Positions 2,082 to 55,289 of a stretch of DNA of 64,000 nucleotides are shown here, one piece after another (the first letter of the stretch is position 1; each line of letters starts with the position of its first letter). A program made the translations under genes and the position numbers. Location: contig JALGQZ010000007.1 of assembly GCA_023105745.1 (NCBI GenBank), positions 5,625,592-5,689,591 of the forward strand, written 5' to 3'. The notes beneath the pieces were generated by a model that worked only from the letters and a program-made list of their open reading frames with translations, had not been told where the DNA came from and made no database searches. This DNA comes from Austropuccinia psidii. Lineage: Eukaryota; Basidiomycota; Pucciniomycetes; Pucciniales; Sphaerophragmiaceae.

Positions 2082-2126
2082 CCAGGGCGAATCTCGCATC
2101 AATCGTCGGCGATTGACTTCACATCA
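2082..2126 (+). repeat. Left terminal inverted repeat of element A
   Basis: These 45 bases match the reverse complement of 22552-22596 at 40 positions. The repeat starts CCAGGGCGAATCTCG and contains an internal hairpin with 7-base arms TCAATCG and CGATTGA. All five differences from the right repeat are transitions. The boundary with Gypsy-2 pol is at 2081/2082. Confidence 0.88.
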
Positions 2127-2451
2127 CACCGTGGTCAGTATAAAATCTTGCATCAGTCGCATTAGTGTCACTTTATAGTCACTGGATTTAGTGGGTCACA
2201 TCACGTCAGCGTCAAGACAATGTCAATCGTCACATGTGTCACATGAGAATGTCACTCAAAGCACAAACCCATTTCAACACTATTCGCAATGTCTGGGTAA
2301 TTTCACCTCATTGGCTTCCACAACCCCACCTAATCTGCCCCAACGCTTTGCATGCTTACGCGCCCGCACCGCCCTCCAAATGAGACTCTGACACTGCCCC
2401 CCCATCTCCATCCTAACCACTAATTACGCTTTCACACCCCCGCCCTTACCA
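2127..2451. other. Left subterminal region rich in GTCA/TGAC motifs
   Basis: No gene. The tetramer GTCA (or TGAC) recurs many times, often as 'GTCAATCGTCACATG'-like clusters around 2200-2260. The right end of the element (22440-22551) has the same habit, with repeated CTTGACGT. CACTA-type elements usually carry short subterminal repeats that bind their transposase; that role here is inference. Confidence 0.45.
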
Positions 2452-2875
2452 TCTTTATGCTCATGTGGTGCCCTCCCGACATGCTCCCGACACCACTTAT
2501 CCTTAGGCTCGCGGAGTGCCCTCCCAACATGCTCCCAACACCACTTATCCTTACGTTTGTGTAGTGCCCTCCCGACATGCTCCTGACACCACTTATGCTC
2601 GCGGAGTGCCTCCTGAAATGCTCCCAACACCACTTATCCTTATGCTTGTGTAGTGCCCTCCCGACATGCTCCCGACACCACTTATCCTTATGCTTGCGGA
2701 GTGCCTCCCGACATGCTCCCGACACCACTTATCCTTATGCTTGTGTAGTGCCCTCCCAACATGCTCCCGACACCACTTACGCTTGTGGAGTGCCTCCCAA
2801 CATGCTCCCAACACCACTTATCCTTACGCTCGCGGAGTGCCTCCCAACATGCTCCCGACACGACTTATCCTTATG
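2452..2875 (+). repeat. Minisatellite, unit 40-48 bp, about nine copies
   Basis: Imperfect tandem units alternate between a 48-base and a shorter form. Each contains a CCACTTATCCTTATGCTTG-type half and a CTCCCGACATGCTCCCGACA-type half. The array starts just inside the left end of element A. Its core CCTTACGCTTGTG...CCCGACA also occurs in the second array at 12025-12375. The Cys/His- and Trp-rich overlapping frames on both strands are translations of this repeat, not genes. Confidence 0.85.
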
Positions 2876-2895
2876 CTTCCGTACTACATCCATAG

Positions 2896-2919
2896 TGTAC
2901 GCCGGCTTGTTAGCGTACA
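2896..2919. promoter_or_regulatory. 24-bp palindrome 1 (TGTACG-N12-CGTACA)
   Basis: An inverted repeat with arms TGTACG and CGTACA separated by exactly 12 bases. It lies between the left minisatellite and the start of gene X, and is one of four copies of the same design in element A. The central part is more diverged than in the other three. It could be a dimer-binding site or an RNA hairpin; function unknown. Confidence 0.6.
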
Positions 2920-3419
2920 CAATGAACGCAATCGCCAAAATATGCTGAGTGGCCTTCTCTGCCAACAGGACCTAAGGGGAAATTGGTCAGTATATTCACA
3001 ATGTTGTGGTTAGGGTTTAAATCATGAGACTCACAAATTAAAACCTAATAAGTGGACTATTTAAGACAAGAATTGTGTCTCCTGTTTTGCCGACAAAACC
3101 ATTTTATTTCATATCATTCAAATGGAACACTTTGCTTAGTCCTTACCTCATGAGCATTGAATAGTTCAAAAGTTGACTAAAATAGGTTTCTCACTAGTCA
3201 ACTTTATTCAATGTCTCACAGGGAAGTGATTTAATTTGCATGATATGAAATAATTTGCAAAACATCGCCTCCTTCAATTTCCCAACAACTCACATTTTGC
3301 AAATGCGATTCTTTTACTTCCACCTTTTTTCTTCAATTTGGATCTTTTTATTCAAAAATTTTAAAACAAGTTATAAATCAACTTGTCACCATCTATTTTC
3401 TTAATAAACTACCTCCGCT

Positions 3420-5135
3420 ATGGCCCAAACCCCCGGAAATTCAACTGAATTCAATGAACAACCAACTTCAGCCCCAAAGAGTGGAAGTGAAATCTCTGAT
3501 ATCGCCAGTAGTCGTGAATTAGGCATTAAAGTAGAGAGCCAGTAACAGGAAGATAATCAAGATCCACCAGTTCTTCCAGAATGTGAGTATGCACCCATCT
3601 TGAATATTTCTGATCTCCCAAAACCTGATATTGTGTCATAGCCTTTATTTCAGGTCAGCCTCCAAGCTCTCAGAAACCAAATTTTAAAAGTTATGAGAAG
3701 GAAAAGACTGTTTAAACTTGTGAACCAACAGAAGATGATGGGCAAGATGATGTAATTTGCAGTGGGGAGGTGGAAATTATATCCAAGGAGCAATTTGTCT
3801 CCAACATTGCTCAAACAATCCCAAGGCTTGAAAAAATTCAAAGTGATAGTAAAATTCCTGATTATTTGCGTCAAAAGATTGCTGAAGCCATGAGCCTGCT
3901 CAAAATGGATTTGAACCGCAAGTCCATTACTAATTCAGAACAAAATTGATAAAAATAGCTGCTTAAAATATATGGGCAGGTGTGGAGGTGGGAGAATCTC
4001 TACCTGAAGGATCTCGAGTCGTAATTGGATTTCCAGGAAAAGGATTAGGAAAAAGACCAAATATACATGCAACAGAAAAAACAAATAAAAAACGCCGTAC
4101 CTTTGAAGCCGCAAAGGATTCTCAGGATCAAGGTGATGAAATGATCAATGTTGAAGGGGACCATATTGATAATGAACCTTCGCATACTGAACCCCCCCCA
4201 TACTCAATGAAACAATCCATGATGAAGCTCCAAATACTGAAAGCCCCCCGATACCGAATGAAACAATCCATGATGAAACCCCTCCCGCCTCTCCTTGGAA
4301 TATTCAAGCCTTTCAAGAAAGGGAAACAATTAAACATGATAGAATGGGACGAGATATGACTGATATAATTCCTGACCCTGAGCCCGAAGTGTCATTTTCT
4401 GCTAATTCTCAAGGAATATTTTGTTCCCGCATGGAAGGGTTTGCAGCCATTTGGAATTATCATTCCAATATTACTCAACAATCATGGAAAAGGGGTTTTG
4501 ATAATATCAATAGGATTTACAAAAATTGATGGGACAATTTACCAACAAAGGATTCTGATACATTCCTGCCCATTGGTATTAAGGTTATCATCAACCAAGA
4601 GCTTAAAATGTTGGCCTGGCTTGAGGACCTTGAGATGGCAGTTGAGTTTTATCTTTTTGCATGATACATGTTTATTGGCTGTTGACTGGTGATATAAATT
4701 GCAATATACAGGGTTAGATTTTTTTAAGCCAACCAAAACAGAAGCGGTTTTTGATCACAACATTTGGAATCTCAAATTGCTAAAGGAATCAGCTAAACCT
4801 CCAGAGAATCTCCCAAAATCTGAACACTCCTTCTTCAAAATGGTTCAGAGCCTTCTTTACCCCGCCAATCCAGTTAAACATTTTTGGCCAAATGTTATGT
4901 TTGACTCCATCAGTTTAGTCTCATACGATGTGGTTGCACCCAAACCATATGTTGCACCAACATCAAATTTGACTGATCCTCTTGGACTCGAACGGGGAGC
5001 AGTTGAATACCTTGCCTCCTGCTTGAGTAAATCAAAGTAACGTGCAACCCAACTCAGCATTGAAGTTGGTGGGGCTGACAATGAGATCTCCACAAAGCTG
5101 CACAAGAACCTGGAGGATCTAATGGATACAGTTAT
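3420..5135 (+). pseudogene. Gene X of element A, 5' part (conserved unknown protein)
   Basis: I do not recognise this family, but it is real: pieces match gene X of element B (56645-58716). Conserved blocks in order are 'EQFVSNIAQTIPRL' (near 3790), 'GVEVGESLPEGSRVVI' (3980), 'GLDFF' (4705), 'HSFFKMVQSLL' (4825) and 'RGAVEYLASCLSKSK' (5000-5037). The start at 3420 is the first ATG of an open stretch ending at a likely GT-AG intron (about 3580-3655). Several stop codons interrupt it, including TAA at 5038. After that stop the frame stays homologous up to 5135, where the LTR element breaks it inside the conserved 'HLMI' block; it resumes at 9412. The middle is charged and low in complexity, suggesting a disordered nuclear protein. 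Confidence 0.65.
5131..5135. repeat. Target-site duplication GTTAT, left copy
   Basis: GTTAT directly precedes LTR 1 and recurs at 9412-9416 directly after LTR 2. Removing the element and one copy restores the reading frame of gene X, which confirms the insertion. Confidence 0.92.
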
Positions 5136-5674
5136 TGTGAGCCTGCAAGCATGTAATGGCTTACCTGCTACACCGTCTACATCTTATTTTTTTTTTATTT
5201 TATTCAATGATTAGGTTCAAACTCTAACCTAAAAATTAAAATTTATTATTTTAAATCTTAATGATGTCATAAAATATCATATGACATCATTTAATTTTGT
5301 AAATAAATCATTATTAATTTCTTTTGATGATGTCATAAAAACCTTATTATGACATCATTAATATTTTTGTATTTACAATATTTAAGAGGATCATTCTTAC
5401 CTTTGAATGATACCTCAGAGCTCTACCACATTATATTTTTTACAAATGAAAATTAGTTACATTTTATTTTAGAAATATCAGCGCTCTCACAGATAAGTGA
5501 TTTAATTCACTTTTACACTTTATTATACTGTTGAAGCTTAAATTCCAACAGTACTTCATTAAAAACGTACAGTGACATCTCTTTTATTTTATCTTAACAG
5601 TATTCCACTTCTTTTTAATTTGTTAAAATTCCTTTTATATAAACTGGAAGTCACGAAAGAGACCCCAGTTTACA
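5136..5674 (+). repeat. LTR 1 (5') of the composite element
   Basis: A 539-bp repeat, nearly identical to 8873-9411. It has TG...CA ends and contains paired AT-rich stretches carrying GATGTCATAAAA/TGACATCATT inverted motifs. The near identity of the two LTRs indicates a recent insertion. Confidence 0.92.
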
Positions 5675-5688
5675 TTTAATATATTAAA

Positions 5689-6278
5689 TGTTAGCCTGGG
5701 GCCTCTAACGTGGCTTCCAGTCTAATTATTAGTAATTTTAATAAACTAAGTAGGTAGTGGAATACTATTATTATAAGTAATAGGTGCGTCACTCTTGTTT
5801 ATAACATAGTACTGTCGGTATTTAAACTTCAACAGTACTATAGCTGGGTAAAGTGAATTGAATCACTTTTAAAAGTGAGAGCGCTAATTTCCCAAATTAA
5901 AAGTAAGTAATTTTAATTCAAAAAAAAGTATATTGATAAGAGCTCTGAGGATTAATTCAAAGAGAATTAATCCTCTTTAAGTATTGTAATTACAAATTCA
6001 AATTCAAAATAATATGAAATAATTTTTGTTCAAATGAGGAAGTATCTGTTATAGCAACATGAGCAGACATAACAACAAGATTGATGACATAGTGGGAACT
6101 TTATATTATGACATATTTAGGAATCAGTCATAGCAACAAGATTAAATTCATATTATAATATAATAAATTTAAGTATTTGAATTTTATACAAAACAATGAA
6201 AGAAAATAAGACAAAAATTTAAAGAAAGTAGTTGGAGTCTGTATAGCAGGTAAAGGTTTACAAGCTTGCAGGCTCACA
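5689..6278 (-). repeat. Inverted, diverged LTR inside the composite element
   Basis: Read on the minus strand this starts TGTGAGCCTGCAAGC at 6278 and ends in an AACTGGAAG...GCTAACA block at 5689, a diverged version of the flanking LTRs. It keeps the CAGAGCTCT and AGCGCTCTCAC blocks. It lies 27 bases beyond the stop codon of the minus-strand ORF, so it is the 3' LTR of the reversed unit. The segment 5905-6030 is the inverted complement of 7140-7245. Confidence 0.8.
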
Positions 6279-6304
6279 TTTGGTAATACTAAAAAAAAAA
6301 TGAT

Positions 6305-7150
6305 TTAGTCCTGATAAGGGTTATGATTACTTTGAATTCTGGAAATAATGTCTTGTATATTTGAGTTTTCTTCATATGAAAATGTTTTGTTGCTGGAGTC
6401 ATGGAATTGTCTAAGATCTTTGAGTTCGTTTGTATTTAATTTATTTTTATGGGATGATTTTTGAAGGAGAGCTGATTCAATCTGGACTTCTAGCATATTG
6501 AAAGTTTTTTTCGAGTTGAGGTAGTAGTATAGGTCTCTTTCCATATGGATATTCTTTATGATTTTCAGTAAGATACTTGATGTTTGAATTTTAGTTGTAA
6601 TAGGTTGATCGTTTAATTTTATTTCAATGTAATATTCAATTTTGCTTGTTATCGCCTTTTCTTTATTTACAGTATCAGTTACATCTATTGTTTCTTCTTT
6701 ATTTTTATTAATAGTTGTATCTATCATTGCAAGCTGAATTCCGTTGATTCTGGAGCTACCGCGACTGGTAGTAGGTTGTGATTTTTCTTCTTTTATATTA
6801 TAGATCTCATTATTATTAGTCTCAGGTTGATTACTACTCAAAGGTCTGTTGTTATTTGTCGTTGTTCTTTTTTGAGTTTTTGCATTTTTATTTGTTGTGA
6901 TAGTGTTCGCGTTGGTACTTTTAACATCAAAATTATTACTATACTCCTCTTTTGTAATGATCTCCTTGATCATAGTACCATTGCAAATAGCCTTAGGAGC
7001 AGAGGAGGCTTTGAGGGTTCCAGAGTCGTAAGGGGAATGAGATCGTGTACTAATATCAGGATTAGGAATAAAAGGCTTGACTGTACGTCTGTAGGCTGTA
7101 TTGGTAGCTAATTCGTCTTTGAAATTTGATTCATATTGTTTTGAATTTTA
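6305..7150 (-). pseudogene. Minus-strand N/S/T-rich ORF of the reversed unit, 5' truncated
   Basis: The frame from the first ATG (6973) gives 222 residues, but it stays open upstream to about 7150, where it abuts an LTR fragment, so the true N-terminus is missing. The N-terminal half is low complexity (Asn, Thr, Lys); the C-terminal 90 residues are charged and helical-looking, with 'ILLKIIKNIHMERDLYYYLNS'. The order (disordered region, then helical tail, stop, LTR 27 bases later) mirrors the plus-strand ORF at 7515-8822, whose stop lies 50 bases before LTR 2. The two are probably diverged members of one family. Function unknown; a Gag-like structural role is possible but no zinc knuckle is visible. 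Confidence 0.55.
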
Positions 7151-7275
7151 ATTTGTAATTACAATACTTAAAGAGGATTAATTCTCTTTGAATTAATCCT
7201 CAGAGCTCTTATCAATATACTTTTTTTTGAATTAAAATTAAACTGGAAGTCACAAAAGAGACCCCAGTTTACATT
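7140..7275 (+). repeat. Partial plus-strand LTR end inside the composite element
   Basis: Bases 7140-7245 are the inverted complement of 5905-6030. They are followed directly by the last 30-odd bases of an LTR (CTGGAAGTCAC...GTTTACA) and then TTTAATATATTAAA. The stretch from about 7241 to 7289 therefore repeats 5640-5688 in direct orientation. The middle of this LTR (about 280 bp) is missing. Confidence 0.75.
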
Positions 7276-7514
7276 TAATATATTAAAATTATTATTAGAA
7301 ATAATTCATTAGCTAATTAATTCTAAATAAATTAATTAGACGTTGGATACTACCTAATTAAACTGATATCTATTCTTACTCTATCATTCAACGAAATCAA
7401 AGACTATTTTGATTTTTTTTTTTACAATAATCTCGACAATTTGAAGATTTCATTCCAAATCACTTTTATTGATACAACATTCTCTAGTTAGACCCATCTG
7501 TTAATTCGTCTAAC

Positions 7515-8822
7515 ATGAAAAACTTAAATAATACTACTTTTGATCCTTCCGTAGTATTAATTTTTAATAACTTCTCTTTAATCATGAAGGAAATGAGTAA
7601 TATCACTCATAACCTATCTGTAATGCTGAACAATAATTGTAGATTTAACCAATATACACCTCGTCGTCAGCCCAGAAAACCAACTACTAGATCCACAGCT
7701 TGGTTGAATTGCAAACATCTTAGTAATAGCAAGACTATAGTTACTGATCAGAAGAAAAAAATAATTAATTCAGCAAATCGCAATCCTTGGTCGTGTTTGA
7801 ATAACAAGCCAATGAAAAATACAGTCTCAGAAGATAATGTTAGTAATGCAGATATCAACAGCTTGGTTCATACAGCTTTTATCCCCTCATTCAATCGTTT
7901 CAACCTTCTTGCTCAATCTAATAGCCACACAAAACCATTTAGACAACCTACAGCATCTCTTGCTGTTGGTTATGATCAAGAAAGAACAAAACATAAAGAA
8001 TGCAGCCAGTCACTAACTGAATTAGCAGCAGATCGAAAGGGAAATAAAGGTTCAGAAGTTTACAGTGGTAATACAACTGTCAACTTCTCATCGGATTCAG
8101 ATCTTTCCCCTGTATATAAGTCCAATATACTTGAGGAGTATAGTAATAGTTTGGCTAGTAAAGGAATCAATGCGAATAAAATTAAAAAGGATAGCAATAC
8201 CAGTGCTAAACAGTCTTACGCGAATAACAATAACATTAAAGCAATTAGTGGTAATAGCAGTATGCGAGATTTAAAAGTCAACAATAATACAACTAATCAA
8301 AGTACAGACGCGAAATCTACTTCAGATACCAGTAACAACGAAGAAACCTTTAACAGTAAAGAAAGTAATAATACTATAAGTGATCTGAATACAATCAATA
8401 ATAATAGTAGTGTAACACTCACAAGAGAAGCTATACAAAAGGAAGAGATTGCCGATGAAGATAGAATGGTAAATGAAGTTGAAAACTTTATAGCAAAGAG
8501 GATAATCGGGAAATCTACAAAACTGAAAGAAACCATATCGAAAGCTTTAAAAAACTTTACAACAAAACTTGATGGTGCAATAAACATTAATAAATTATTT
8601 TTTCCTAATGAAGACTACAACGAATTGAAGATTTACATTGAAGAAATAAAAAAACAAAAACAATCACTTTATTTTGAATTTCTAAACAAAAAAGAAATAC
8701 AAATTTGTAATAGTTTCTATGATTCAGATTATACAACAAGAGAAGAACTTTATTATAATGATTCAAAAACTCAAAACATTATTATGAAGATTGTAAATGA
8801 GTACAGTTATTATTATTATTAA
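7515..8822 (+). CDS. Intact 435-aa Asn/Ser-rich protein of the composite LTR element
   Basis: An uninterrupted frame from ATG at 7515 to TAA, ending 50 bp before LTR 2. I do not recognise the family. Residues 1-60 include a hydrophobic/basic start and 'RRQPRKP'. Residues 100-310 are low complexity with many Asn, Ser, Thr and Lys. Residues 310-435 are charged, predicted helical, with 'EVENFIAKRIIGKS', 'EDYNELKIYIEEIKKQKQSLYFEFL' and a terminal run of five tyrosines. No zinc knuckle, protease or polymerase motif is seen. Unlike nearly every other frame in the window it carries no lesion, which argues for recent activity. Possible roles are a Gag-like packaging protein or a host gene captured by the element; neither is shown. 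Confidence 0.7.
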   Translation: MKNLNNTTFDPSVVLIFNNFSLIMKEMSNITHNLSVMLNNNCRFNQYTPRRQPRKPTTRSTAWLNCKHLSNSKTIVTDQKKKIINSANRNPWSCLNNKPMKNTVSEDNVSNADINSLVHTAFIPSFNRFNLLAQSNSHTKPFRQPTASLAVGYDQERTKHKECSQSLTELAADRKGNKGSEVYSGNTTVNFSSDSDLSPVYKSNILEEYSNSLASKGINANKIKKDSNTSAKQSYANNNNIKAISGNSSMRDLKVNNNTTNQSTDAKSTSDTSNNEETFNSKESNNTISDLNTINNNSSVTLTREAIQKEEIADEDRMVNEVENFIAKRIIGKSTKLKETISKALKNFTTKLDGAININKLFFPNEDYNELKIYIEEIKKQKQSLYFEFLNKKEIQICNSFYDSDYTTREELYYNDSKTQNIIMKIVNEYSYYYY

Positions 8823-8872
8823 TCATAAATTACACTTATCATTTTTTTCATATTTTTTTTAGTGTTATGAAA

Positions 8873-9411
8873 TGTGAGCCTGCAAGCATGTAATGGCTTA
8901 CCTGCTACACCATCTACATCTTATTTTTTTTTTATTTTATTCAATGATTAGGTTCAAACTCTAACCTAAAAATTAAAATTTATTATTTTAAATCTTAATG
9001 ATGTCATAAAATATCATATGACATCATTTAATTTTGTAAATAAATCATTATTAATTTCTTTTGATGATGTCATAAAAACCTTATTATGACATCATTAATA
9101 TTTTGGTATTTACAATATTTAAGAGGATCATTCTTACCTTTGAATGATACCTCAGAGCTCTACCACATTATATTTTTTACAAATTAAAATTAGTTACATT
9201 TTATTTTAGAAATATCAGCGCTCTCACAGATAAGTGATTTAATTCACTTTTACACTTTATTATACTGTTGAAGCTTAAATTCCAACAGTACTTCATTAAA
9301 AACGTACAGTGACGTCTCTGTTATTTTATCTTAACAGTATTCCACTTCTTTTTAATTTGTTAAAATTCCTTTTATATAAACTGGAAGTCACAAAAGAGAC
9401 CCCAGTTTACA
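8873..9411 (+). repeat. LTR 2 (3') of the composite element
   Basis: A 539-bp direct copy of 5136-5674. It ends CCCAGTTTACA and is followed by the target duplication GTTAT at 9412-9416, after which gene X resumes. Confidence 0.92.
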
Positions 9412-9846
9412 GTTATCCATTTGATGATTGCAAACAACATGGTACATGCACATACGAAGGTCAAAGTTAATGGAATCAAAGGCAAACGCACGAACTCAAA
9501 AAAAAATGAGGCCATCAAAGATCTTTTGACATGTCACAAGAATCTCGGAATAAATGAAATTTTCTATGGTATATTAGCGGCATTCTGTGCGGCTGGGATT
9601 CATGGTTTGATGGTATGCTCAGATGACTGGAGAACAAGCTCAGTTAAAGGGGCTTTATCACTAATTGAAATTTCCGCAAAACTTTCAGAGGGTAAAAATC
9701 TAGTGGAGCCAGTGTGGCTATGTACTAATAAGTATATATGTAATTTACTGAATAAAACTTTCTTCTCATCAGAGTCTTTTAACCCCACTGTACCTCTTAG
9801 ATTTGAATTTGCACAATGCTTAGTATTAGACTTTGGTGATGCCTGA
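9412..9846 (+). pseudogene. Gene X of element A, 3' part
   Basis: This continues the frame broken at 5135: 'VI' + 'HLMIANN' aligns with 'LHLMISYV' in element B. Further shared blocks are 'GIHGLMVCSDDWRTSSVKGAL' (near 9595-9655) against 'MVCSRDWRKSSAKGAL', 'NKTFFS' against 'NKAFFS', and 'AQCLVLDFGDA' against 'AKCFVLDFSEA'. The frame ends with TGA at 9844-9846, where element B reads on for about 20 residues (EAWLEKN...), so the C-terminus here is slightly shortened. Family and function are unknown; its retention in both giant elements implies a role for the element. Confidence 0.65.
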
Positions 9847-10512: not shown

Positions 10513-11873
10513 ATGCCATTCACGAAAAAAGGGAACTCGCGAGAAAGCGTTGGGTTGAGGAAGGAAAGTGTGAGTTGCTCGCTCAATCTCAGTGTATATA
10601 TATAGATATATATATATGCTTCCAAATTTATGTGGCACCCTCATTGGCTTTAGTTGGTTCAGATTGTGCCAATGTCATGTGGGCTCCAACAGGGAAGTCA
10701 AAGGATGTGTGCCAAAGAAAGCTCCTTGGGCATTGGGCACCATTCTGGACTCAAAACTCCTTAGCTTCAAATGGCAGGAAGCAGTATCTGATATCTTGTC
10801 TGCTTCAACACATAGTGATCGCTCAACCACTCGGGAATAGTGGGAGATCCCAAAAGACAAATGAGGGGAAAAAAACCCAAAAGAATAGGTTTTTTTCCTA
10901 CTCTCAACCAACAGCACAAATATCAATGCCAGTCTCAGCAAATATCACCCCAAGTGAAATTCGGAGGGCTGTGGATGTCAATCAGATAAAACACATTCAC
11001 TTTGGCCGTGTGGCAATTTTCTCCTCAACCGGATTACTCATTGCCCTTGTCAAATTGCAACCATCCACAACAATAAGTGAAGTTGATGTCAATCAATGGG
11101 ATGAATTATCACAATTCTTATTTCGCGAAAAGAGATTCACCAACCCGATTGCAACAAATGGAGCATTACTGGAGGTATTTATGTTCGCGATTGGGTGGCG
11201 CAAATGCAGCACGAAGAATGAACAATTTGGTCTGTATGGAAGTGTCGTGAAACTTGAAAACGCAAAAGATGAATGGGGGAACTGAGGTGCCAATCTTAGC
11301 TTGGTGGGTTGCATTCTAGGTCAATCCTTACAATATGTTGGGGATAATTTATTTCAGAAGATTCAAAATTGCTACAACTCATTGGGGGTTCTGTCTTTTG
11401 ATCAAGTCAACTATGAAGGCAATATTCTGGTAAATCAGGGTGCATGCGAGTTTGCTTCCACACTCACTTTCACCATGAATGGATTCAAAAACGCACCTCA
11501 TGTTGATAAGGATGCATCGCATTATGCTTCAGGATGGTGGTTTCAAGCTGATAAGTGGACCGGCCAAATTCAAAGAGATGCATCAACGCGATGTACAGGG
11601 GGAAAATTGATTTTCCCAAATGAGCATTTTTGGATTGATCTATCCGATTTCCATGGGCTCATTCAGGTAGTGTGGGCCAGTAGTAAATTTGTTCATTATA
11701 CTGATCCAGCACAGGACAACAAAAGCACGACACTAGTGGGTATGTCCGCACAATGCTCAAGCAGGTTAGCAAAAACAATGTGCCAAAAAATCCATGGCTA
11801 TTATGAGATTGGCAAGAGAGTGGGCTATCAAATCAGGGATGGTACTACAATCTCATGCCAATTCAAAGAATGA
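10513..11873 (+). pseudogene. TET/JBP-like Fe(II)/2-oxoglutarate dioxygenase
   Basis: The main frame runs 10575-11873 with one internal stop (TGA, 11283-11285); a short first exon from ATG 10513 ending near GTGAGT (about 10570) is possible. The catalytic half matches the TET/JBP (Tet-like 2OG-Fe(II) oxygenase) fold: HVD iron motif at 11499-11507, then 'GGKLIFPNEHFWIDLS', a distal histidine candidate in 'FVHYTDPA' (11694; 'FHG' at 11652 is the alternative), and 'SSRLAK' with the 2-oxoglutarate-binding arginine candidate at 11763. The family oxidises 5-methyl groups of cytosine or thymine in DNA; fungal members are expanded and linked to DNA transposons. The upstream half has 'IHFGRVAIFSSTGLLIA' and 'FREKRFTNPIATNGALLE'. 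The stop replaces one codon in 'EWGN*GANLS', most simply CGA to TGA. Activity would need readthrough. Confidence 0.82.
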
Positions 11874-12021: not shown

Positions 12022-12024
12022 TAT

Positions 12025-12375
12025 GTCCTGCTTATGCCTGTGCAGGCTCCTGACAATTCACATGCCAATCCTTGCGCTGGTGAAGGCTCCCAAAAATGCT
12101 AAAAATTCCTTACGCCTGTACAGGCTTCCAAGGATTCACACGCCAATCCTTACGCTTGTGAAGGTTGCCAAAAATTCTGACAAATTCTGACGCCTATGTG
12201 GGCTGCTCACGCTTCACACGCTAATCCTTATGCCTGTGCAGTTTCCCGACAGCTCACACGCCAATCTTTACGCCTGTGCAGGCTCCTGACACTTCACACG
12301 CCAATCCTTACGCCTTTTCAGGCTCCCAACAGCTCACACGCCAATCCTTACGCTTGTGAAGGTTCCCGACAATTT
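12025..12375 (+). repeat. Minisatellite, 40-bp unit, about eight degenerate copies
   Basis: The unit is close to TCACACGCCAATCCTTACGC followed by CTGTGCAGGCTCCCGACAGC. It is regular from about 12216 and more degenerate to the left. It shares the CCTTACGCTTGTG...CCCGACA core with the array at 2452-2875, so both arrays probably descend from one repeat. Confidence 0.8.
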
Positions 12376-12788: not shown

Positions 12789-13388
12789 TTATTTTTCTAA
12801 GTATTTCGAGACTATCCTGGTGATGTCCTCCTTTGGATAAGCCTCCAGTGCCTGGGCAAGGAGGGAGTTTAATTCCTCCCGGAATTCCCGGTGCATCTCA
12901 TTTCGATGATTTGCATCCATGAAAGGAATCATGTGGAGCAAGCCGCGATGCTCCAACAAGATTCAGTTGATTGATTAGTGGACGATGGCTCGAGGAATCA
13001 TTAAAGTTGGTTGTAAGTAAGTGAATTCCTGGCAAGCGTCATCGTGGGAATGAGAGGGGCTTTGCACTGGAAGGGATCTCTGCGGAGGGGGGGGAACGGA
13101 AGGGGAAGGTTGGAGAGTCGGGTAGGAAGAAGGGGGAGGGGGAGGGGGGGATCCAACGGGCGTATCGTCAATGATGGTTATGGAGCGGGGAGTGGCGGGA
13201 CAAGCTGGAGATGGTCGAAGGGGGGTGAGGACAACTTGCGTAGAGTTAAAAAAGTGAAATTGGGACTTACCAAAAGGTTCCTCCGTGGATTGCATAGGAG
13301 CCACCTCAGGTTCTGGGCACCAAAAACGTTCATGCACTGTGGTCCTGGTGGGGCATGGATTGAAAATTACCAATCCAATCCTACTCAA
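12789..13388 (-). pseudogene. Gene Z, proline-rich unknown protein
   Basis: The minus-strand frame starts at 13388 and reads through 'TVHERFWCPEPEVAP' and a long Pro/Ser-rich segment ('VGSPPPPPPSS', 'PSVPPPPQRSLP') to a stop at 12975. The same frame continues after two stops into a good helical C-terminus, 'ILLEHRGLLHMIPFMDANHR' then 'ALEAYPKEDITRIVSKYLEK', ending with TAA at 12789-12791. That the homologous-looking tail stays in frame argues the stops are lesions. I do not recognise the protein and see no counterpart in element B. Its start is 147 bp from the SNF2 start on the other strand, so the two may share a bidirectional promoter. Confidence 0.5.
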
Positions 13389-13535
13389 ATATTATGTGTT
13401 GAGGGAGTATTTATGACTGATGCAAATAATTCCTCCTCATCTCAGAAACCCAATCTAGCATTAATGTTCTTCACATGGTATCCAAACATTTTATTCATAA
13501 TGGAAAGCTTTTGAACACAAGATTTCAAGCTTAAA

Positions 13536-15410
13536 ATGCCCAAAGAATATGACTGTAATACTCATAGTCAATGTCAACTCTTTACTCCGACATTTCCCAC
13601 TTCAAAGTCAATGCCAGCTTCATATCCTTCTGTTTCATCATTGATTTCCAAGCAAAAACTGATACAATTACCCAGTGAATCAGACCTCCTCATGATCACC
13701 CTGCCCCACGCCCTTATTCAAACCCCCCTCCTCCCTCATCAAAAGACCGGACTAGCTTTTATCTGGGATTGAGAAATCCCCAATGGCCAATCAGCCCGTA
13801 ACCTTTGGGCCACCTCACCCCCAGCATCCACTTTTAATGCCAGGCACCTCAACACAAACAAGGTTGTTAGCTCATTTGAATCCCTTTTGACCAATACCTC
13901 TCTTGGAGGACTGCTCGCGGAAGATATGGGAGTAGGTAAAACCATTCAGGGCATTGCTCTAATTGGTACCTCCAAGGAGCGGATGATTGCAAACCCCGAT
14001 CGCTCCACGCCCACCATGATCATCTGCCCCCCTCGCTTAATTACCAATTGGCAATCAGAAATATCCAAGCATGCTCAGGCTGGAGCGCTGCATGCCAAAA
14101 TCTACCATGGTCCCACTTGTCACTCATTATCCAAAGCCGACATCTTAAAATATGATATCATCATCACTTCTTACAATACTATCACCCAAGAATTTAAGCA
14201 AACCAGTACCTCTACATCATTCATTTTTCAAATCAATTGGCATTGTATAATTTTGGATGAAGCACAGTGAGTGGCTGAGCTTAAATGATTCAAATTAACT
14301 TTCATATCCAATAACCCTTGCCCCATCGTATAGCTATATTCGCTCTCAATACACTTCCACTCACCGTGCCATTAATAGCCTCCTTTCATCCCGTCGAATA
14401 TGTTGAACGGGCACACCTATTCACAACACCATTTATGACCTTTTGGGCATAATATCATTAATCACTCAACCCCAGAGCGCCGATCAAGATAACTGGTCAC
14501 CATTCATCCTGATTAGTCTTTCCAAAGGTTGCAATGATATCTTGCATTTGGCATTGCAGCATTTAAGTTTGTGCCGCACCAAAACCACACATCTCGAATC
14601 CCTCCCCACTATTAGCCATCATTATGAGCTTCTCCCACTCAACCCGACCATGCAGCAAGAATATTCCACATTATATGAAGAATTACTATCATTTAAAAGC
14701 AAAGGACCAGGAGAATTTTTCAGAAATATTAATAAGCTGCGAATATGTTGTAACCATCACATCATGCTTAACACAATTGGGGAGGCGGATTTGGAAGACC
14801 CCAGGGGCAGGAGCACTCAGGATAACTCCCCAACAATCACACAAACTATTGTGGATGTGGAAACATGCATGCTGAGTAGTAAAATTGCACACCTCCTACA
14901 AAGCTTAATGAAGAACAAACAAACAAAGTGTGGTCCAACCAAATCGGTGGTTTATACCCAATGAACCCAATTTCTAGATCTGTGCGTTAATTCAAATGTG
15001 CATCCAATACCAATTGAATCCATCTGACTTTTTTATATTGTGGAATTGTTATTGCACTTGCCCATCACTCTATCCTTTCAGCACAAATTGATGGAACAAT
15101 TACAGCACAAGCACAGGCGAAGGCACTGGAGAATTTCTTCAATAATGCTGAATGTGAAGAACTGATTGCATCCATTGCCGCAGCTTAAACTGGCCTCAAT
15201 ATAACTTGTGCTAATACGTTCTATTTAATGGTGAGGGTACCGCCAAAATTCTGCCCTGATTTGCGGCCCCTGACATCCACATTTCCAGGAGCCCAATTGG
15301 AACCCAACCATTGAGGTTCAGGCTGCTGATTGACTCCATCATATTGGCCCACAACAACCTGTAAAGGTCATCCACTAGATCACTCCTCAATCAGTTCAGG
15401 TCGACTTGCG
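13536..15410 (+). pseudogene. SNF2-family ATPase (Rad5/Rad16-like) of element A
   Basis: Motifs in order: 'LLPHQKTGLAFIWD' (Q-like motif, 13725), Walker A 'EDMGVGKTIQ' (13921), 'TMIICPPRLITNWQSEI' (Ia, 14015), 'YDIIITSYNTI' (14150), and DEAH split by an intron at 14267-14333 (GTGAGT...TAG), then 'STHRAINSL', 'TGTPIHNTIYDLLGII', 'LRICCNHHIML' and 'KSVVYTQ' (14945). After a second intron comes a degenerate motif VI, 'VQAADxLHHIGPQQPVKV', near 15325-15370. These proteins remodel chromatin or translocate on double-stranded DNA using ATP. Several stops and frameshifts (for example at 13771 and in the last 300 bp) make this copy inactive. Element B carries a better preserved paralogue with the DEAH intron at the same codon. 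Confidence 0.8.
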
Positions 15411-15737
15411 GAAGTTACCTTTAAAGCTCATCTTTGACCCTAATTGTATTGCTATCCTAAAATCCTTCCTTATGAAAATTCTATTTTCCAAACACCAATA
15501 GGTCCAAGAAAAGAAAAAATCATTAACTGCGTGAGCCTTACTGATATTATATAATTTGCGTTTGACCAAGTTGATCACACCTGCCCACCCTGGCACAGGT
15601 CCACAATTATGAACAACATGAGCTGGATCGAACTCCTTCAATATTTCCTGAATGAAAATGAGAAATAGAGTATTATTTCTAAGGGAGACAGTGATACAGT
15701 CCAACGCATATCGTCTATATTCTGACATATTTAGCAA
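15396..15737 (-). other. Unidentified 113-codon minus-strand frame
   Basis: An open frame with aromatic-rich composition ('NDFFFSWTYWCLENRIFIRKDF'). It lies between the 3' ends of SNF2(+) and gene Y(-). No family recognised, and nothing similar noticed in element B. It may be a remnant exon or chance. Confidence 0.2.
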
Positions 15738-15839
15738 GTTGTTGCATCTTTAAGAAATAATAATCAGATTGTATTACACCTGCACAAATAATTCACAAAA
15801 TGTTAATTTGTAACGGTGCTAAACATTTATACTACTAAT

Positions 15840-17837
15840 TTATTGCAGAGAATCACCATTCGGCCTAATAACTGGCATGTCAAGTATTTTGAGGGCGCTA
15901 GTCTGCATCTTACTACAGCCTTTGACCCAATCTTGATCAAATACCTGAAATGATAAGCCTTCCAGAATATCACCATCATCTGTTGATCGTAATTCTGGCA
16001 ATCTATTAATAGTTTTTTTACCCTTTTTTTTAATGCGATTACAAAACTCTATGTCTCGATCCATTTTTAATACCAATTCATTCAATAACTGGGAGCGCCA
16101 GCATAATCCCACTTTGAGGTAAATGCTAGAATGGGAAATTTAGCCATATCACACCATTCACGATGGCGCTAACAGGTCTGCACATAATCAAGTAGATCAT
16201 CATCAATCTTTGCTCACAATGAAGAAGAGATACATTAACTAACCCTTTGATGAATCTTTGTGAACTTTTGATTCTCCTTCTTTTTAACCAAATACTCGGC
16301 ATCCTTTTAAATAGACTTCCATTCTCTTTCCAAATAAGTGAAATATATCTCCATTCGAGCCGCCACGACCCCATAGTTACTATGATCCTTGTTCCAACAG
16401 TAATGATGATACTCGGTGCTGACAAGTGCGAGACGGAATGTACGCTAAAAAACCATAGATATCAGCTCATTGAACGGATGTTGCCATGAGCTCTCCCAGT
16501 CCCAAGTGAATCGCTTGAGTCCTAGCTTGTGGAGCTCATTTTTGCAGTAGCTTTGGAAACCCTGAGACTGAACCTGTGTTGATGGCTCATTGAAAAAATC
16601 CTTGGGGACATATCCGAGATGACCAGCCACTTTAATTGCAATTTCACGCTCTTCTGTGCTTGGTGGTGGTGGTAGTGAGGAAAAATCCTTATCCCTAACT
16701 TTGAGTAGGAACAGGCAATGGGCATGTACTACTGATCTCATTTCATGGACATTCTCTGGAATTTCTGCTTTCAGCCATTTTTGTTGCTCCTTCTGGCTTG
16801 CACGTTTTGCCACATTGTGAGCTTTATGAGCCTGGTTCCTTTGCTGTCTGATCTCGGATTGTTCAAGAATACTCTGGGCCAGGGGCATTTGAGGATGGGT
16901 GAACTCACTATTTGACTGCGTGCCATGCTCATGCGCCATGAAATTGTCCCTCCTTGGTTCATCATTTGTTTCCATTTGAGTCGGAGACATGTTCTCATCC
17001 TCATCATCCACCATTTTTTCTCTTGATGAACTGGCATGAGCTGTTCTTGGTTTGCAGGAATATGGATGATGACTTCCAGTGACTTTCTCTTTATGGACCA
17101 GAGGTGAAGATGCATAAAGTTTGTCACCTGCCATTCACATCATCAGTTAACACATCAAAAAATTAATGAAGACTGGTCATACTCACAATCTTCAATTGGC
17201 TCCTGAGATCAGACTGACTTGCCTTTAGGTGCCATATCTAACCCATGAAACAAAAATATCAAATTGTGAAAAGGGTTATACTCCAAAATTCAAATGACTT
17301 ACTTTGATGAAGCGTCAATCCTGGATTTCCCTCCGACAGACCACTTCAAGTTACATTCTCCAATGGTCTTTTTTATTGCCCCCCATCCATGCGCCTTTCA
17401 TCGCCCACATGAACCTGAGATCCTGATGAAATAATGAGGGTTGGCTCTTTACTTTGGCCAAAGGGCTCCTGGGATGCGACTGGATTCTGACCGGGATTAA
17501 GGAGGAACTCACGTGGAAATTTTGATTGGGGATTAGCGTTTGATGAGATTTGAGGTGTGCCTTCTGGCCCCTGAGACACATGTGTTTGTGTATTAGTGGG
17601 ATTTGGGGGAATTGGAGTGACAGAAATATTTGGGATCGACCAAGTGCTTGAAGTTGGAGCCTTTGGATTTCCCACATCAAGGTTAAGACCTGATACATTC
17701 ATTGAGGATTCAATAGGGGTTGTGAGAGGAATTTTGGGACTCAATGGTGACTGTGTTTGAACATATTCTATGCTAGATTCACTATCTGAGTCATGAACTG
17801 AACCTGAACGCGATTTATGTGACTTGGAAGGTGACAT
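15840..17837 (-). pseudogene. Gene Y of element A (conserved unknown protein)
   Basis: Read leftwards: a Ser/Pro-rich N-terminus (17837-17373), a middle piece (17134-16445) ending 'CKNELHKLGLKRFTWDWESS', and a C-terminal piece (16112-15840) with 'LNELVLKMDRDIEFCNRIKKK' and 'LEGLSFQVFDQDWVKGC'. The corresponding blocks in element B gene Y are 'CEKECQLVGLKRITFQWGTA' (near 60240) and 'CTRQLDLAMTLGAKTQLEKN' (59730), in the same order and spacing. Introns are expected between the pieces, and a frameshift is likely around 16126-16425. The family is unknown to me. The central block resembles a small helical domain followed by a basic stretch ('LVKKKENQKF' in the alternative frame), so nucleic-acid binding is possible. 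Confidence 0.5.
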
Positions 17838-18822
17838 AAGGGCCGAAAAAGTACACTCATATTTTTAACTAGATAAAACACCTCAGTATTATGATAAAAT
17901 AGAGTGATATGAGATGAAATCTTTTCAAATTTAGAATAGAGATATTCTATGAATATTTCTAAAAAGAGTCTTATTGGAAGTCTAATAAGCCTCTTTTTAG
18001 GAGAATCCTCCCTACCTCCTCTTGAGCTCCTCCGCTTTTGTCGGAAACCACCCTGCACGGCCTACCACCATATAATGTAATATTCCCTTGATCTCAAAGG
18101 GGACCCATCATCCATAAGTAATCATATTTGGTAACATTTCCGCCTCCCCATTGTCACATTTTATGAATTATTCAAACTGCCAATACTTGCATTGAAATTC
18201 CACAGCATTGTACATCTGTAAAGGGGTATATTCATGAAGGATTTACCCACAAAAGAGACATCACCTTTTCAAGAAAGGTGAGAAAGTCCAAATCACATTC
18301 CTGCCAATTAAAAGACTGTTGCACTCAAACCAAATACCAAGACTTTAGCTGCACTCCAACCCCTTATGTGATAGAGTTATATCGTTATGTCTGTAATAAG
18401 GTTTAAGCCATGTACGATGGCGTGCCAGCGTACATGGTTTGAATTTCAATCCCTTCAAATCAATGTTGACACATCCCTATTGGAACGCCCCTCAAGGGTC
18501 AAAACCGCAGTATTGCCATGTGTAAATAAAATAGAAGATGTATGAGCATTGAGCAGCATGGCATTTTACCCAATTAAACTCCTAACAAATTCCGCCATCC
18601 AGATGAGACATGTTAAACTCTATCAGCTGCACCTCACGCACCATTACAAATGGGATAAAATTCTCAGATAGCTCAAATCATCTCCCCCTTCATAAATAAT
18701 CACTCAATTTTTTTTCCAATTAATAACACTCCTAAACACTTTCACATCAGCCATAGATATTTATACACAAACCAACCGTACTCCCAATTTCTGCAACAAT
18801 GACAACCGGTTGCTATTCCTAA
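17838..18822. other. Divergent intergenic region between gene Y and the transposase
   Basis: No gene supported. It separates the 5' ends of Y(-) and the transposase(+), so it should contain both promoters. It holds palindrome 4 at 18411-18434. Confidence 0.45.
18411..18434. promoter_or_regulatory. 24-bp palindrome 4 (TGTACG-N12-CGTACA)
   Basis: The best copy: arms TGTACG and CGTACA with core ATGGCGTGCCAG, extended by one more matching base on each side (CATG...CATG). It lies between the divergent starts of Y and the transposase. Confidence 0.7.
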
Positions 18823-21800
18823 ATGCGTATATGCATGTGTCAACACTTCTCAACTCAAAAACACTCTTCCCCTGAGGGTGATAGGCATGGAGTTGCCTCC
18901 ACACCTTTCCAATATAAACAGAACATTAAAAAGCTCACATCAACCATTGCACCCAAATATCTTCCAAACATCCCTACTTCTGCATCAGGATCTGAGTGCC
19001 CACAGCTTCTATTGGATCAAATATTCCCAGCTGATTATTCACCATTGACCCAAAGCACCTTCTCCACAGCACCGGGTCTCAATTCAACTGCACAGAAACC
19101 ATACAGCAGCAGTCAAACCCTTCCCCCACAAGACCGTGGAATGATAATATCTACCATTCTATCATTAAGTTATAATATACCCCGCAGGGCTTCACACATT
19201 CTCAACCCCGCCCTAAACCTGCTGATCAAGTCCAGCATCTCAAGCTCCGGTGGTCCCCCCACTGCTGCATTCCAGATACCTCAAGATCTGAGTACCATAT
19301 TTGAACATCTTCAATTGGAACCAGCAATTCAAAACTATATATGTTGTCCTCAATGTTTCTCGCTTAATGGCCTTACTGAATCAGTCACAACTGACCAACC
19401 CCACTGTCAACGCCATAATGACCCAAATGATCATGATCCCCCTTGCACACAAGCATTAGGAAAATTAATGTATTCATTTGAACCCCGCACCCAAAACACA
19501 ACCAACATGAAGCAAAAATTTATCCCAACAAAAAATTTCATTTATCAACCATTCAAAAATTGGCTTGCCAGATTTCTCCAGCGGGCTGGAATTATGGAAA
19601 TTCTGCCGCAACATCAACAATCCCAAACTCCTGAAGGTTCCCCAAAATGTGACATCTGGGATGGATTGGTCTGGAGACGCTTCACTGGCACCAGAAATAT
19701 CCATGACCCCCCATTGATGTCCATTCCTGGTGCATTGGCCTTCTCCATTTATGTGGACTGGTTTAATGCACATGGAAAGTCAGCCCGGTTGGCCAGCATT
19801 GGACCTATCATGCTTATTTGTCTTAATATTCCCCCAAGTGAAAGATTGAAGCCAGAGAATGTCTATGTTGCAGGAATGATCCCTGGTCTGAAGGAGCCAA
19901 CTTCCCTTCAATTGAATTACCTATTAATGCCACTCATCAACGAGGTCAAAGAGCGATGGCAAGGTTACCATTTTTCACACACCTCAACAGGTCCTTCAGG
20001 ATCCTTTATCCGTGTTGCCATTCTCACAGCCATTGCAGATGTGGTTGCCATGCGCAAGCTTACTGGATTTATTTCTCATTCAGGCAGCCACTTTTGTAAT
20101 TTTTGAACCATTCACAAAGCTCAAATTGAAGAAATTGGTCCTCAATTTCACTACACACACTCATATCAAAATCATAAATCAACCATTGCGAAATGGCTTC
20201 GGGCAACCCCACAACAAAGAAAAGCAATTTTCTCTGAGTATGGAGTGTGATATTTAATTTTAGAAGACCTTCCGTATTGGGATGCAACCAGAATGGTTAA
20301 TCTTGACATAATGCATAATTTAATCCTGGGAATTTTGAAGGATCATGCAACTTTCAAATTGTGCATTCCAAAGTCCAAATCAAAAATTTACCTCAGGTCG
20401 CGCAGGAAATCCAATGACACCAACAGTTCAGACTCAGATTCCATGACCTCCAACAGCTCTCTTGATAAAATCACATTGAGAGAGGCCCGCTCCCTGAGAA
20501 GAGATGCAACAAAAATAATAAATGAGCCACTCCCCACTACTTCCCAATGCACACCCCTTACACAGAACATCCATCTAGTGGTTCTGTGGAGATTCCTTGA
20601 TTTGATGCGGATTACATCCCCACTTCTGAACTCCCCTCTGAATTGGATATCACTGCGCTGAGTGATCACCAGATCAAGGGTGAGGCTCTGGAGCATCTCC
20701 AACAAATCATATCTGAGACGATAATTCCCTCATCATGGACAAGAGTACCTCGCAACATGGGTTCCCCCTCTCATGGTAGCTTAAAAGCCGCTGAATGGGC
20801 TCTCTTATATAACGTCTATATTCCATTTTTAATTCTCAGTCAACAGATGTCATTAGATGTACACCAATCCACCAACAGTCAAAGAAAAATGGGTCAGTCA
20901 GAAGAACTTGCAAATGAACTAAACATTGCCACAAGTTGGACTGTTTCAATAGATGATGCGACTGCATTTGCTGAACATTGGAAAAAATTCAGCCTTTCCA
21001 ATCAACTCCTGTTCATCATCATTTTGCTGATCATATTCCCGAACTCTTCCAATTTTGGGGCCCAGCACAAGCCTCAGCCACCTGGGGTTATGAGCGCTTT
21101 ATTGGAGTATTTGCAAAAATGCCAACAAATAACAAAATATGTACGTCAATTAATAAGATAAATATATTCACATTGATTAAACTCCTGAGCTGAATAAGAC
21201 TAACTTCTTGCACCTCTGAATAGATGATATAGATAAAACCTTACTTCAACATATCTGTTGATGTTCCAACCTTTCCGTTCTCCTGAAATCCCCATCCATG
21301 CCATGTGAAATAAAACTGCTTTTTGACTCACAGACACCTGCCCTGTTCAATGACCACAAATATAACAAACCATCCCGCCATGAACAAGAAAATTATGATT
21401 TCCTGGTTGAGTACTTACAGAATTTTCATGCAACAAGGTAAATAGTTGATTGGCTCAGCTTAGACACTGCTGTGCAATCCACAAGTCCTCTCACTTCAAG
21501 GATTTTCTCACCTTGGTGTTTTCCAGTTTCAAACATTAATATTGGGAACAATATATTTTCAATTGAATCCAAAAATGTCAGCAACAGTGTGATATGTTTT
21601 CTGAGGGGCAACTCACGACAATTTGGTATTATTAATAGCATTTTTAAAGTCTCTGAGCCATCTAGCATACTGAACAATAACTTTCTGATCTTAAAAACTT
21701 TGAAGATTGATGTGAATTTCTTACCAGATTGGCCTCATCTGAATATTTATAAAGCTGTTGGTTTTGCTGATGGACACTTGATTAGATCTGAAGAAGAAAT

Positions 21801-21885
21801 TGAAGGTAACTGTGGATTGTATGATAACAAAGTTCTGTCATGTGGACTGCTTGTAATGATAAAGCCGTTATTTCATGATACTTAG
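18823..21885 (+). pseudogene. tnp2/Plavaka-like transposase of element A
   Basis: The N-terminal part carries a cysteine pair 'YICCPQC' (near 19340). The core has 'IYVDWFNAHGKSARLASIGPI', 'CLNIPPSERLKPENVYVAGM', 'IPGLKEP' and 'RVAILTAIADVVAMRKLTGF', typical of tnp2-type (CACTA/Plavaka) transposases. The frame stops at 20104-20106 inside what should be CxxC ('FCNF*' against 'FCSFC' in element B) but homology continues: 'DIMHNLILGILKDH' (20305), 'LKAAEWALLYNVYIPFLI' (20790), 'GPAQASATWGYERFIGVF' (21060, shifted frame), an intron (GTACGT...AATAG, about 21140-21223) and the C-terminal 'RGNSRQFGIINSIF' (21610). Lesions include TGA at 20104 and at the 'GV*YLILED' site plus at least two frameshifts. 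The gene would excise and insert the element; this copy cannot make a full protein. Confidence 0.78.
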
Positions 21886-22143
21886 TCTACAAAAATGCAA
21901 ATCTCTCAGATTCATTAGTAATTTTGCTAGTGAAATAACTGCCTCAAAATTTAGTGGCAGAGACATGCAATTGTGACAAGCAAAGCCCATTATTTCACAT
22001 TGCCACAAAGAACTTACTATTTTGACATTGGGTACAGTGTGAATAAGCCAAGTTCAATGATCAAATGACCCACACACTCACCTTTCACAGGATCCAAAAT
22101 TTCTAACTGCGCCATCATCATGTTGGAAGGGGAATCAGCCCTT

Positions 22144-22201
22144 GTGCACCCGCACCCGCACCCGCCAATGCACATGCAAGCGCACCCGCACCTGCACCTG
22201 C
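22144..22201 (+). repeat. CGCACC-type hexamer repeat
   Basis: Short tandem runs of (C)CGCAC with interruptions by GCACATG and CCTGCA. It lies in the 3' part of element A with no gene around it from 21886 to 22551. Confidence 0.7.
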
Positions 22202-22439
22202 GGTATTGTGCGGCGGACTCTACCAGTGTCATCTGCAAAACGACAATCCCGCTCAGGCGGAGTCCTTTCATGGATGACCTGGTGAAGTCAAACCCCCCAC
22301 CTACATCAAGACTGGCTGAAGGACCTCTTTGATGTGTGTTTGTTCAAACAGGCGGGTCTTGTGTAATTTTTACCAACCATTGGACGGTTGCGGGATGATC
22401 AGGCGGTGAGGAATCTGAGTTGAAGGCACAGTGGAACCA

Positions 22440-22551
22440 ATATTGGTGGATGTCACAGGATTTGGTGTAAGACAAGAGTAGGACGTGTGCTCAACGTTTG
22501 CTTGATTTTCGCTTGACGTGAGCTCGACTTTTATCCTGCTTGACGTTTGCT
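22440..22551. other. Right subterminal region with CTTGACGT repeats
   Basis: CTTGACGT or close variants (GCTTGACG, GCTCAACG, GCTCGACT) occur at least six times just inside the right inverted repeat. They are candidate transposase-binding motifs by analogy with CACTA elements. Confidence 0.5.
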
Positions 22552-22596
22552 TGACGTGAAGTCAATCGTTGACGATTGACACGAGATTCGCCCTGG
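22552..22596 (-). repeat. Right terminal inverted repeat of element A
   Basis: A 45-bp reverse complement of 2082-2126 with five transitions. It includes the TCAATCG/CGATTGA hairpin and ends GATTCGCCCTGG at 22596, where Gypsy-2 pol resumes. Confidence 0.88.
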
Positions 22597-55271: not shown

Positions 55272-55289
55272 ATTATTTTTTTAGGTTTC

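What the first reader, a model, noticed from the sequence alone, without database searches (positions are those of the whole stretch)
2082..22596. A TET/JBP dioxygenase riding on a 20.5-kb TIR transposon with a SNF2 ATPase and unknown partners
The boundaries are directly visible as 45-bp inverted repeats inside a split Gypsy-2 pol gene. Cargo is transposase, TET-like dioxygenase, SNF2 ATPase and three unknown proteins. Fungal TET/JBP genes are known to be linked to KDZ-class transposons; here the transposase looks tnp2/Plavaka-like, so the pairing may be a different type. A mobile unit that can edit DNA methylation and remodel chromatin may counter host silencing. This last point is inference.
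Basis: partly seen in the sequence, partly recalled or inferred. Interest (0 to 1): 0.92.

Follow-up and report, generated by a model that had tools for sequence, protein, structure and literature searches.

The report
Jumping element carrying methylation-removal genes
A decayed 20.5-kb DNA transposon, very probably of the myrtle rust fungus, carries a TET-like enzyme that may erase DNA methylation, a SNF2 motor protein and two unknown proteins; TET-carrying transposons of this type are already published, but the motor protein as lasting cargo was not found described in the papers searched.

Summary
The observation largely holds. A TIR-bounded insertion (2080-22598) splits a Gypsy pol gene; an uninterrupted Gypsy relative in the same window shows the empty site. 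Inside are a tnp2-type transposase, a TET-like dioxygenase, a SNF2 ATPase and two unknown genes (X, Y). Corrections: a 4.3-kb LTR element is nested in Y (5136-9411), and this copy is broken, with in-frame stops in transposase, TET, SNF2 and X. The host is very probably Austropuccinia psidii. The transposase is EnSpm/CACTA-like; KDZ and Plavaka tests were not met. TET-carrying EnSpm with Plavaka-like transposase were published from rusts in 2025, so the TET pairing is known. New here: a second, diverged element (about 52-64 kb) carries related transposase, Y and SNF2 (no TET in the visible part), so SNF2 and Y look like an old core cargo and TET a variable one; and two tandem arrays, near the left end and between TET and SNF2, share one 18-nt motif, possible binding sites. 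Anti-silencing remains inference; CpG decay in the element and in its own TIRs shows that protection, if any, failed. Other copies in the host genome were not searched: that service did not answer in 18 attempts.

The parts
2080..2126 (+). left terminal inverted repeat (47 nt, 41 match the right one; first base A where the right end has C)
22552..22598 (-). right terminal inverted repeat, outer end CACCAGGGCG
2077..2079 (.). left target-site duplicate: TCC (3 bp, one mismatch to TCT) or TC (2 bp, element then starting CA at 2079)
   Evidence: read; empty-site copy
22599..22601 (.). right target-site duplicate TCT (or TC)
2451..2878 (+). tandem array near the left end, about 48-bp unit; 6 of the 11 matches of the motif ATCCTTAYGCTTGTGTAG lie at 2547-2884
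3716..5040 (+). gene Y, first part (several pieces), no Pfam match above cut-off; pieces match 57003-58728 of the second element
5136..9411 (+). nested LTR element inside Y: LTRs 539 bp with 6 differences, TSD GTTAT; not original cargo
9412..9846 (+). gene Y, second part, 44% over 148 aa to 56718-57161 of the second element
10884..11873 (+). TET/JBP-like 2OG-Fe(II) dioxygenase; HxD at 11499-11507 and distal H at 11694-11696 read from the sequence; one well-supported in-frame stop at 11283-11285
12031..12374 (+). tandem array between TET and SNF2 (40/78-bp unit), 5 of the 11 matches of the shared motif
13317..15370 (+). SNF2-family ATPase gene (approximate limits; Pfam matches at 13773-14270 and 14407-14964), with in-frame stops
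   Evidence: right limit read by eye
16070..17837 (-). gene X, unknown family with many listed relatives in Austropuccinia psidii; in-frame stops in this copy
18823..21885 (+). tnp2/Plavaka-like transposase gene (last piece 21442-21885 assigned by position only), with in-frame stops at 20104-20106 and 20248-20250
51600..64000 (-). second, diverged element (left end not located, runs off the window): SNF2 about 52951-55131 (+), Y 56637-58728 (-), doubtful X 59393-60696 (-), transposase 61531-64000 (-)
50307..51534 (+). uninterrupted Gypsy pol copy, a paralogous empty site

Best explanation
A dead copy of a large EnSpm/CACTA-type DNA transposon, very probably of the myrtle rust fungus. The transposase cuts and pastes the unit at its 47-bp ends with a 2-3 bp target duplication (anatomy shown; movement inferred). 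The long-lasting cargo is SNF2 plus Y (perhaps X); a TET gene is added in this lineage. Most likely (inferred) Y, X or the transposase bind the iterated motif arrays near the left end and between TET and SNF2, SNF2 opens or strips silent chromatin there, and TET oxidises 5-methyl-CpG, so that the element's genes and ends stay usable for a while before host methylation and deamination kill the copy.
For: TIRs, empty site and cargo. Right end CAC.., and tnp2 transposase fit rust EnSpm as described in PMC12730594. Catalytic HxD..H of TET is present here, and H, D and H are at least 90% conserved in the 50 of 120 listed homologs that I aligned. X, TET and SNF2 have 588 of 668, 284 of 316 and 219 of 270 candidates at E<=1e-3, and the 120 best listed of each are, but for one unnamed, A. 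psidii MF-1, as expected of repeated transposon genes. The second element re-finds transposase, Y and SNF2 at 27-52% identity, SNF2 also by profile E 1.4e-19. One motif in two arrays: 11 matches, all in this element, 0.08 expected. PMC12774611 (passages): TEs of A. psidii are CpG-methylated, younger families more, and CACTA follows Ty3 in abundance.
Against: No function tested. A strict HxDxDAS pattern matched 38 and a distal-H pattern 56 of the 120 listed TET proteins, many of them fragments, so a share may be inactive. CpG in the gene bodies is depleted (o/e 0.30-0.48) and 4 of 6 TIR mismatches are transitions in CpG-type dinucleotides, so the ends were probably methylated at some time. CpG is higher at ends and arrays (0.74-0.87), but the TpG/CpA excess is no lower there (1.38-1.51 against 1.26-1.45), so this does not show protection. 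X is only doubtfully in the second element (tblastn E 0.036-0.046; hhalign E 0.011, probability 3.8). Locus-tag linkage of X, TET and SNF2 is weak. X model low confidence (mean pLDDT 61), TET model useless (36). Host-genome copies not examined.
Confidence: 0.6

Rival explanations
1. Passenger cargo: TET, SNF2, X and Y are captured genes carried passively, without a role in transposition or anti-silencing.
For: PMC12730594 describes TET genes as passively transferred between transposon superfamilies. Genes in this copy are broken; strict catalytic patterns matched only 38 and 56 of 120 listed TET proteins, fragments included.
Against: Catalytic residues at least 90% conserved in the 50 TET copies aligned; transposase, Y and SNF2 still travel together in a second element only 27-52% alike, which is long for passive freight.
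Confidence: 0.22
2. SNF2 and X/Y serve transposition itself (target access, end synapsis or repair), and only TET acts on silencing.
For: SNF2 and Y are found in the second element where no TET was seen; by sequence several SNF2 branches are about equally near, so its type is open.
Against: Other CACTA elements move without a SNF2 protein (recalled); the second element runs off the window, so a TET may lie beyond it.
Confidence: 0.3
3. The region is a pile of separate nested insertions, and the TIR pair is shared by chance with genes of other elements.
For: At least one nested element is proven. Two other short inverted pairs span TET or more: 8589-8610/12711-12732 (22 nt, 82%) and 487-509/22006-22028 (23 nt, 87%).
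Against: Those pairs are short and imperfect, of a kind the same list shows elsewhere; most of the gene set recurs in a second element; the motif arrays link both halves of the unit; the empty site joins with one unaligned base.
Confidence: 0.06

Closest known systems
TET-carrying EnSpm (CMCT clade) of rusts, Kojima 2025, PMC12730594 (main text parts 1-5 of 7 read)
   Same: Rust host; Plavaka-like transposase classed as EnSpm; CAC..GTG termini; short TSD; TET/JBP gene inside the element. The paper names A. psidii among species with related EnSpm families.
   Different: Its main text holds no 'SNF2'; supplementary tables and sequences could not be read, so the same family may be listed there. 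Left end or TSD here deviates by one base.
KDZ transposons with TET/JBP (Iyer et al. 2014; paper not held; known here from recall and as cited in PMC12730594)
   Same: Fungal transposon with TET/JBP gene.
   Different: Other transposase, 7- or 8-bp TSD; no KDZ match here.
Plavaka A/B (as described in PMC12730594)
   Same: Transposase similarity; 2-3 bp TSD.
   Different: Termini TGT..ACA or CATCA..TGATG not present; Pfam Plavaka 15.4 bits against cut-off 26.3.
VANDAL/VANC anti-silencing system of Arabidopsis (PMC10398659, opening of abstract in the listing; detail recalled)
   Same: Idea of element-coded, sequence-specific anti-silencing.
   Different: VANC is no dioxygenase or ATPase (recalled); no binding shown here.

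Membership tests
EnSpm/CACTA (fungal, sense of PMC12730594) | tnp2-type transposase (PF02992) | tested here: met
   41.1 bits, cut-off 28.6; second element 73.4 bits
EnSpm/CACTA (fungal, sense of PMC12730594) | termini CAC..GTG | tested here: inconclusive
   right end CACCAGGG; left end reads AACCAGGG, or CAACCAGGG with one extra base
EnSpm/CACTA (fungal, sense of PMC12730594) | 3-bp TSD | tested here: inconclusive
   TCC/TCT (one transition) or TC/TC; both give the same empty site
EnSpm/CACTA (fungal, sense of PMC12730594) | DDE with C(2)C and H(3-4)H motifs | tested here: inconclusive
   candidate D, D and E stretches seen by eye in both elements and a C-x2-C in the second; in this copy a stop lies in the C(2)C region; H motif not checked
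Plavaka | Pfam Plavaka model and PlavakaA/B termini | tested here: not met
   15.4 bits against 26.3 for one piece; termini differ
KDZ | KDZ-type transposase and 7-8 bp TSD | tested here: not met
   no KDZ family among Pfam hits at E<=1 for the pieces scanned (that Pfam holds a KDZ model is recalled); 2-3 bp TSD
TET/JBP dioxygenase | Tet-like 2OG-Fe(II) domain with HxD..H | tested here: met
   PF20515 96 and 38.4 bits, cut-off 27; residues read; conservation
TET/JBP dioxygenase, PU type | PU-type conserved residues (figure of PMC12730594) | not tested
   figure not held; assigned only by host group
TET/JBP dioxygenase | oxidises 5mC in DNA | not testable with these tools
   needs an assay
SNF2 ATPase | SNF2-related domain (PF00176) | tested here: met
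   99.2 and 25.4 bits, cut-off 24.9
SNF2 ATPase, DNMT5- or Rad5-type | closest branch | tested here: inconclusive
   best PDB matches differ by query: RAD5, the snf2/rad54 helicase 1z63, STH1; no chain named DNMT5 or Rad8 among the hits shown (with 60 of 63 shown, 92); no tree built

The most novel reading that the evidence does not exclude
A transposon-borne anti-silencing kit: a remodelling ATPase, a 5mC oxidase and element-specific DNA-binding proteins (X/Y) that act together at iterated motifs (ATCCTTAYGCTTGTGTAG) near the element's end and inside it, with SNF2 and Y the ancient core and TET a later or variable addition.
Probability: 0.28. Interest if true: 0.78.

Novelty: new variant of a known kind. 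Interest (0 to 1): 0.52.

Why it matters
The roughly 1-Gb genome of A. psidii is mostly transposons that are methylated and then mutated away (PMC8063080, PMC12774611; passages). A transposon family that carries both a possible methylation eraser and a chromatin motor makes a measurable arms race: methylation and CpG decay can be compared between copies with and without each gene in existing long-read data.

Tried and rejected
Tried without result: the host genome. The same genome search was sent 18 times and did not complete; so TIR copies, other full elements and allelic empty sites were not examined. AlphaFold models: TET mean pLDDT 36, X 61; not used for fold searches. TET piece against PDB sequences: one hit at E 0.33, unrelated; TET profile: none at E<=1. 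NCBIfam gave generic SNF2 helicases, none near its cut-off, and nothing for X, Y and transposase. Rfam at gathering thresholds: nothing. Plasmid collection: nothing.

Considered and rejected or left open: KDZ or Plavaka membership. RIP: a passage of PMC12774611 calls the RIP indices of A. psidii insignificant, though PMC8063080 found homologs of the RIP methyltransferases; CpG deamination suffices. TET-protected ends from CpG retention: left open because the TpG/CpA excess is no lower there. SNF2 as DNMT5 mimic: no support, no tree. Locus-tag linkage test: pairs with equal contig length and tags at most 3 apart were X-TET 1, X-SNF2 2, TET-SNF2 2; tag closeness alone (at most 3) against shifted lists gave 0.038, 0.17 and 0.19, and the cut-offs 1 and 6 gave 0.06 to 1.0 (120, 120 and 119 tags, one SNF2 hit without a tag dropped): suggestive at best.
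Full report
What is there. Inverted repeats at 2081-2126 and 22552-22597 (46 nt, 89%) were found by the repeat tool. Extended to 47 nt, 41 positions match; no other ungapped place in the 64 kb reaches 28, and 15 shuffled versions of the repeat reached 23-28. The flanks are the two halves of one Gypsy pol gene. A second Gypsy copy in the window (50307-51534) is uninterrupted at that point: 22600-23200 matches 50907-50307 at 87.5% and 1451-2076 matches 51534-50909 at 86.4%, with one unaligned base between. The ends then read CACCAGGGCG at the right and AACCAGGGCG at the left, with TCC/TCT as a 3-bp target duplicate with one transition, or TC/TC as a 2-bp duplicate with one extra base in the left end. 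Both give the same empty site.

Contents, left to right. A tandem array (2451-2878, about 48-bp unit). Gene Y (3716-5040 and 9412-9846, plus strand), split by a nested LTR element 5136-9411 (LTRs 539 bp, 6 differences, TSD GTTAT). TET-like dioxygenase (10884-11873, plus; PF20515). A second tandem array (12031-12374). SNF2 ATPase (about 13317-15370, plus; PF00176). Gene X (16070-17837, minus). Transposase (18823-21885, plus; PF02992; the last piece is assigned by position only). The pieces of X and Y scanned match no Pfam family above its cut-off.

State of this copy. It is broken. Of 7 long TET homologs tried, 4 align over 10884-11870 in one frame and the other 3 over most of it; one stop, at 11283, lies under 102 homolog alignments, 10 of them gapped there. 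SNF2 has stops under 59, 20, 13 and 9 homolog alignments; X has stops under up to 54. Each set was the 120 best-listed homologs; stops with few alignments, and some in X between its exons, may come from introns or alternative frames. The transposase pieces before and after two in-frame stops both align to one open frame of the second element. Relatives that read through exist for at least TET. CpG observed/expected is 0.30-0.48 in the gene bodies, 0.74-0.87 in the ends and arrays, 0.08-0.10 in the Gypsy flanks and 0.16 in the second element. Four of the six TIR differences are transitions in CpG/CpA/TpG dinucleotides, the mark that 5mC deamination would leave. So the element has very probably been methylated and has decayed, less than its Gypsy target.

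Host. The three protein searches put the listed best hits in Austropuccinia psidii MF-1: X 91% identity, 588 of 668 candidates at E<=1e-3; TET 88%, 284 of 316; SNF2 219 of 270. Candidates are limited by length, the lists stop at 120, and the origin of the unlisted hits was not seen. Passages of PMC8063080 and PMC12774611 report CpG depletion, methylated young TEs, and CACTA following Ty3 among TEs in that fungus.

TET copies. Among 50 of the 120 listed TET proteins that I chose for length, the two H and the D of the HxD..H triad are at least 90% conserved. Over all 120, many of them fragments, a strict HxDxDAS pattern matched 38 and a distal-H pattern 56. Many copies may thus be incomplete or inactive.

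A second element. In 51.6-64.0 kb, pieces homologous to this element's transposase (46% over 153 aa, and three shorter matches), Y (34-52% over four pieces) and SNF2 (31% over 123 aa, 27% over 127 aa) occur together; a control comparison with 219 ORFs of 26-50 kb gave one weak hit (E 0.002). Profile comparison confirms SNF2 (E 1.4e-19). X is doubtful (tblastn E 0.036-0.046; hhalign E 0.011, probability 3.8). No TET was found there at E<0.05, but the element runs off the window and its left end was not located. This makes transposase, SNF2 and Y an old association and TET a possible later addition.

Shared motif. ATCCTTAYGCTTGTGTAG with up to 3 mismatches occurs 11 times in the window, 6 in the left array and 5 in the array between TET and SNF2, all on the plus strand; 0.08 expected. 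The pattern was derived from the arrays, so the count is not an independent test; that two separate arrays share it is the point. Such iterated subterminal sites are usual in CACTA elements (recalled).

Known or new. PMC12730594 (parts 1-5 of 7 read) shows 11 transposon lineages with TET/JBP genes, among them EnSpm of a rust with Plavaka-like transposase, CAC..GTG ends and 3-bp TSD, and names A. psidii for related EnSpm families. The TET pairing is therefore known. SNF2 does not occur in that main text; its supplement could not be read. Searches of the held open-access library for SNF2 with Plavaka (no paper), with EnSpm/rust fungi (11 listed of 13), CACTA/Basidiomycota (12 of 23), Puccinia/dioxygenase (20 of 78), transposon-encoded/anti-silencing (10 of 47) and Zisupton (15 of 2,301) showed in their listings no report of a SNF2 gene carried in such elements. 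PMC10799480 (passages) describes host-TE fusions that include SNF2 domains, which is another matter. Iyer et al. 2014 is not held.

Mechanism. Shown: element, cargo, catalytic residues present, repeated relatives in one fungus, recurrence of transposase/SNF2/Y, shared motif arrays, methylation-type decay. Inferred: oxidation of 5mC by TET, remodelling by SNF2, binding of arrays by X, Y or transposase, and a net anti-silencing effect. The result against it is plain: this copy's own ends and genes decayed. Locus-tag linkage in the A. psidii MF-1 proteins was too weak to count as confirmation.

Noticed in passing
5136-9411: Nested LTR element, GC 28%, with ORFs on opposite strands (444 and 280 aa; the 444-aa ORF has no Pfam match at E<=1, the other was not scanned), an internal 119-nt inverted pair (96%) and a third partial LTR end at 7239-7277.
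   Followed up: partly
28253-30107, 35761-37591, 38320-40171: A 1.85-kb repeat in three copies, 95-96% alike, one inverted, around and partly over Gypsy ORFs.
   Followed up: no
23201-25704: A diverged direct duplication with 1.74-1.77 kb spacing (74-96% in pieces), also matched at 45148-45737.
   Followed up: no
55281-56408 (-): Further unknown ORFs in the second element, one weakly similar to the ORF at 59911-60696 (E 5e-4 by tblastn), perhaps an internal duplicate.
   Followed up: partly
22400-22598: Short TTGACG repeats (4 copies) beside the right TIR, one inverted copy beside the left.
   Followed up: partly
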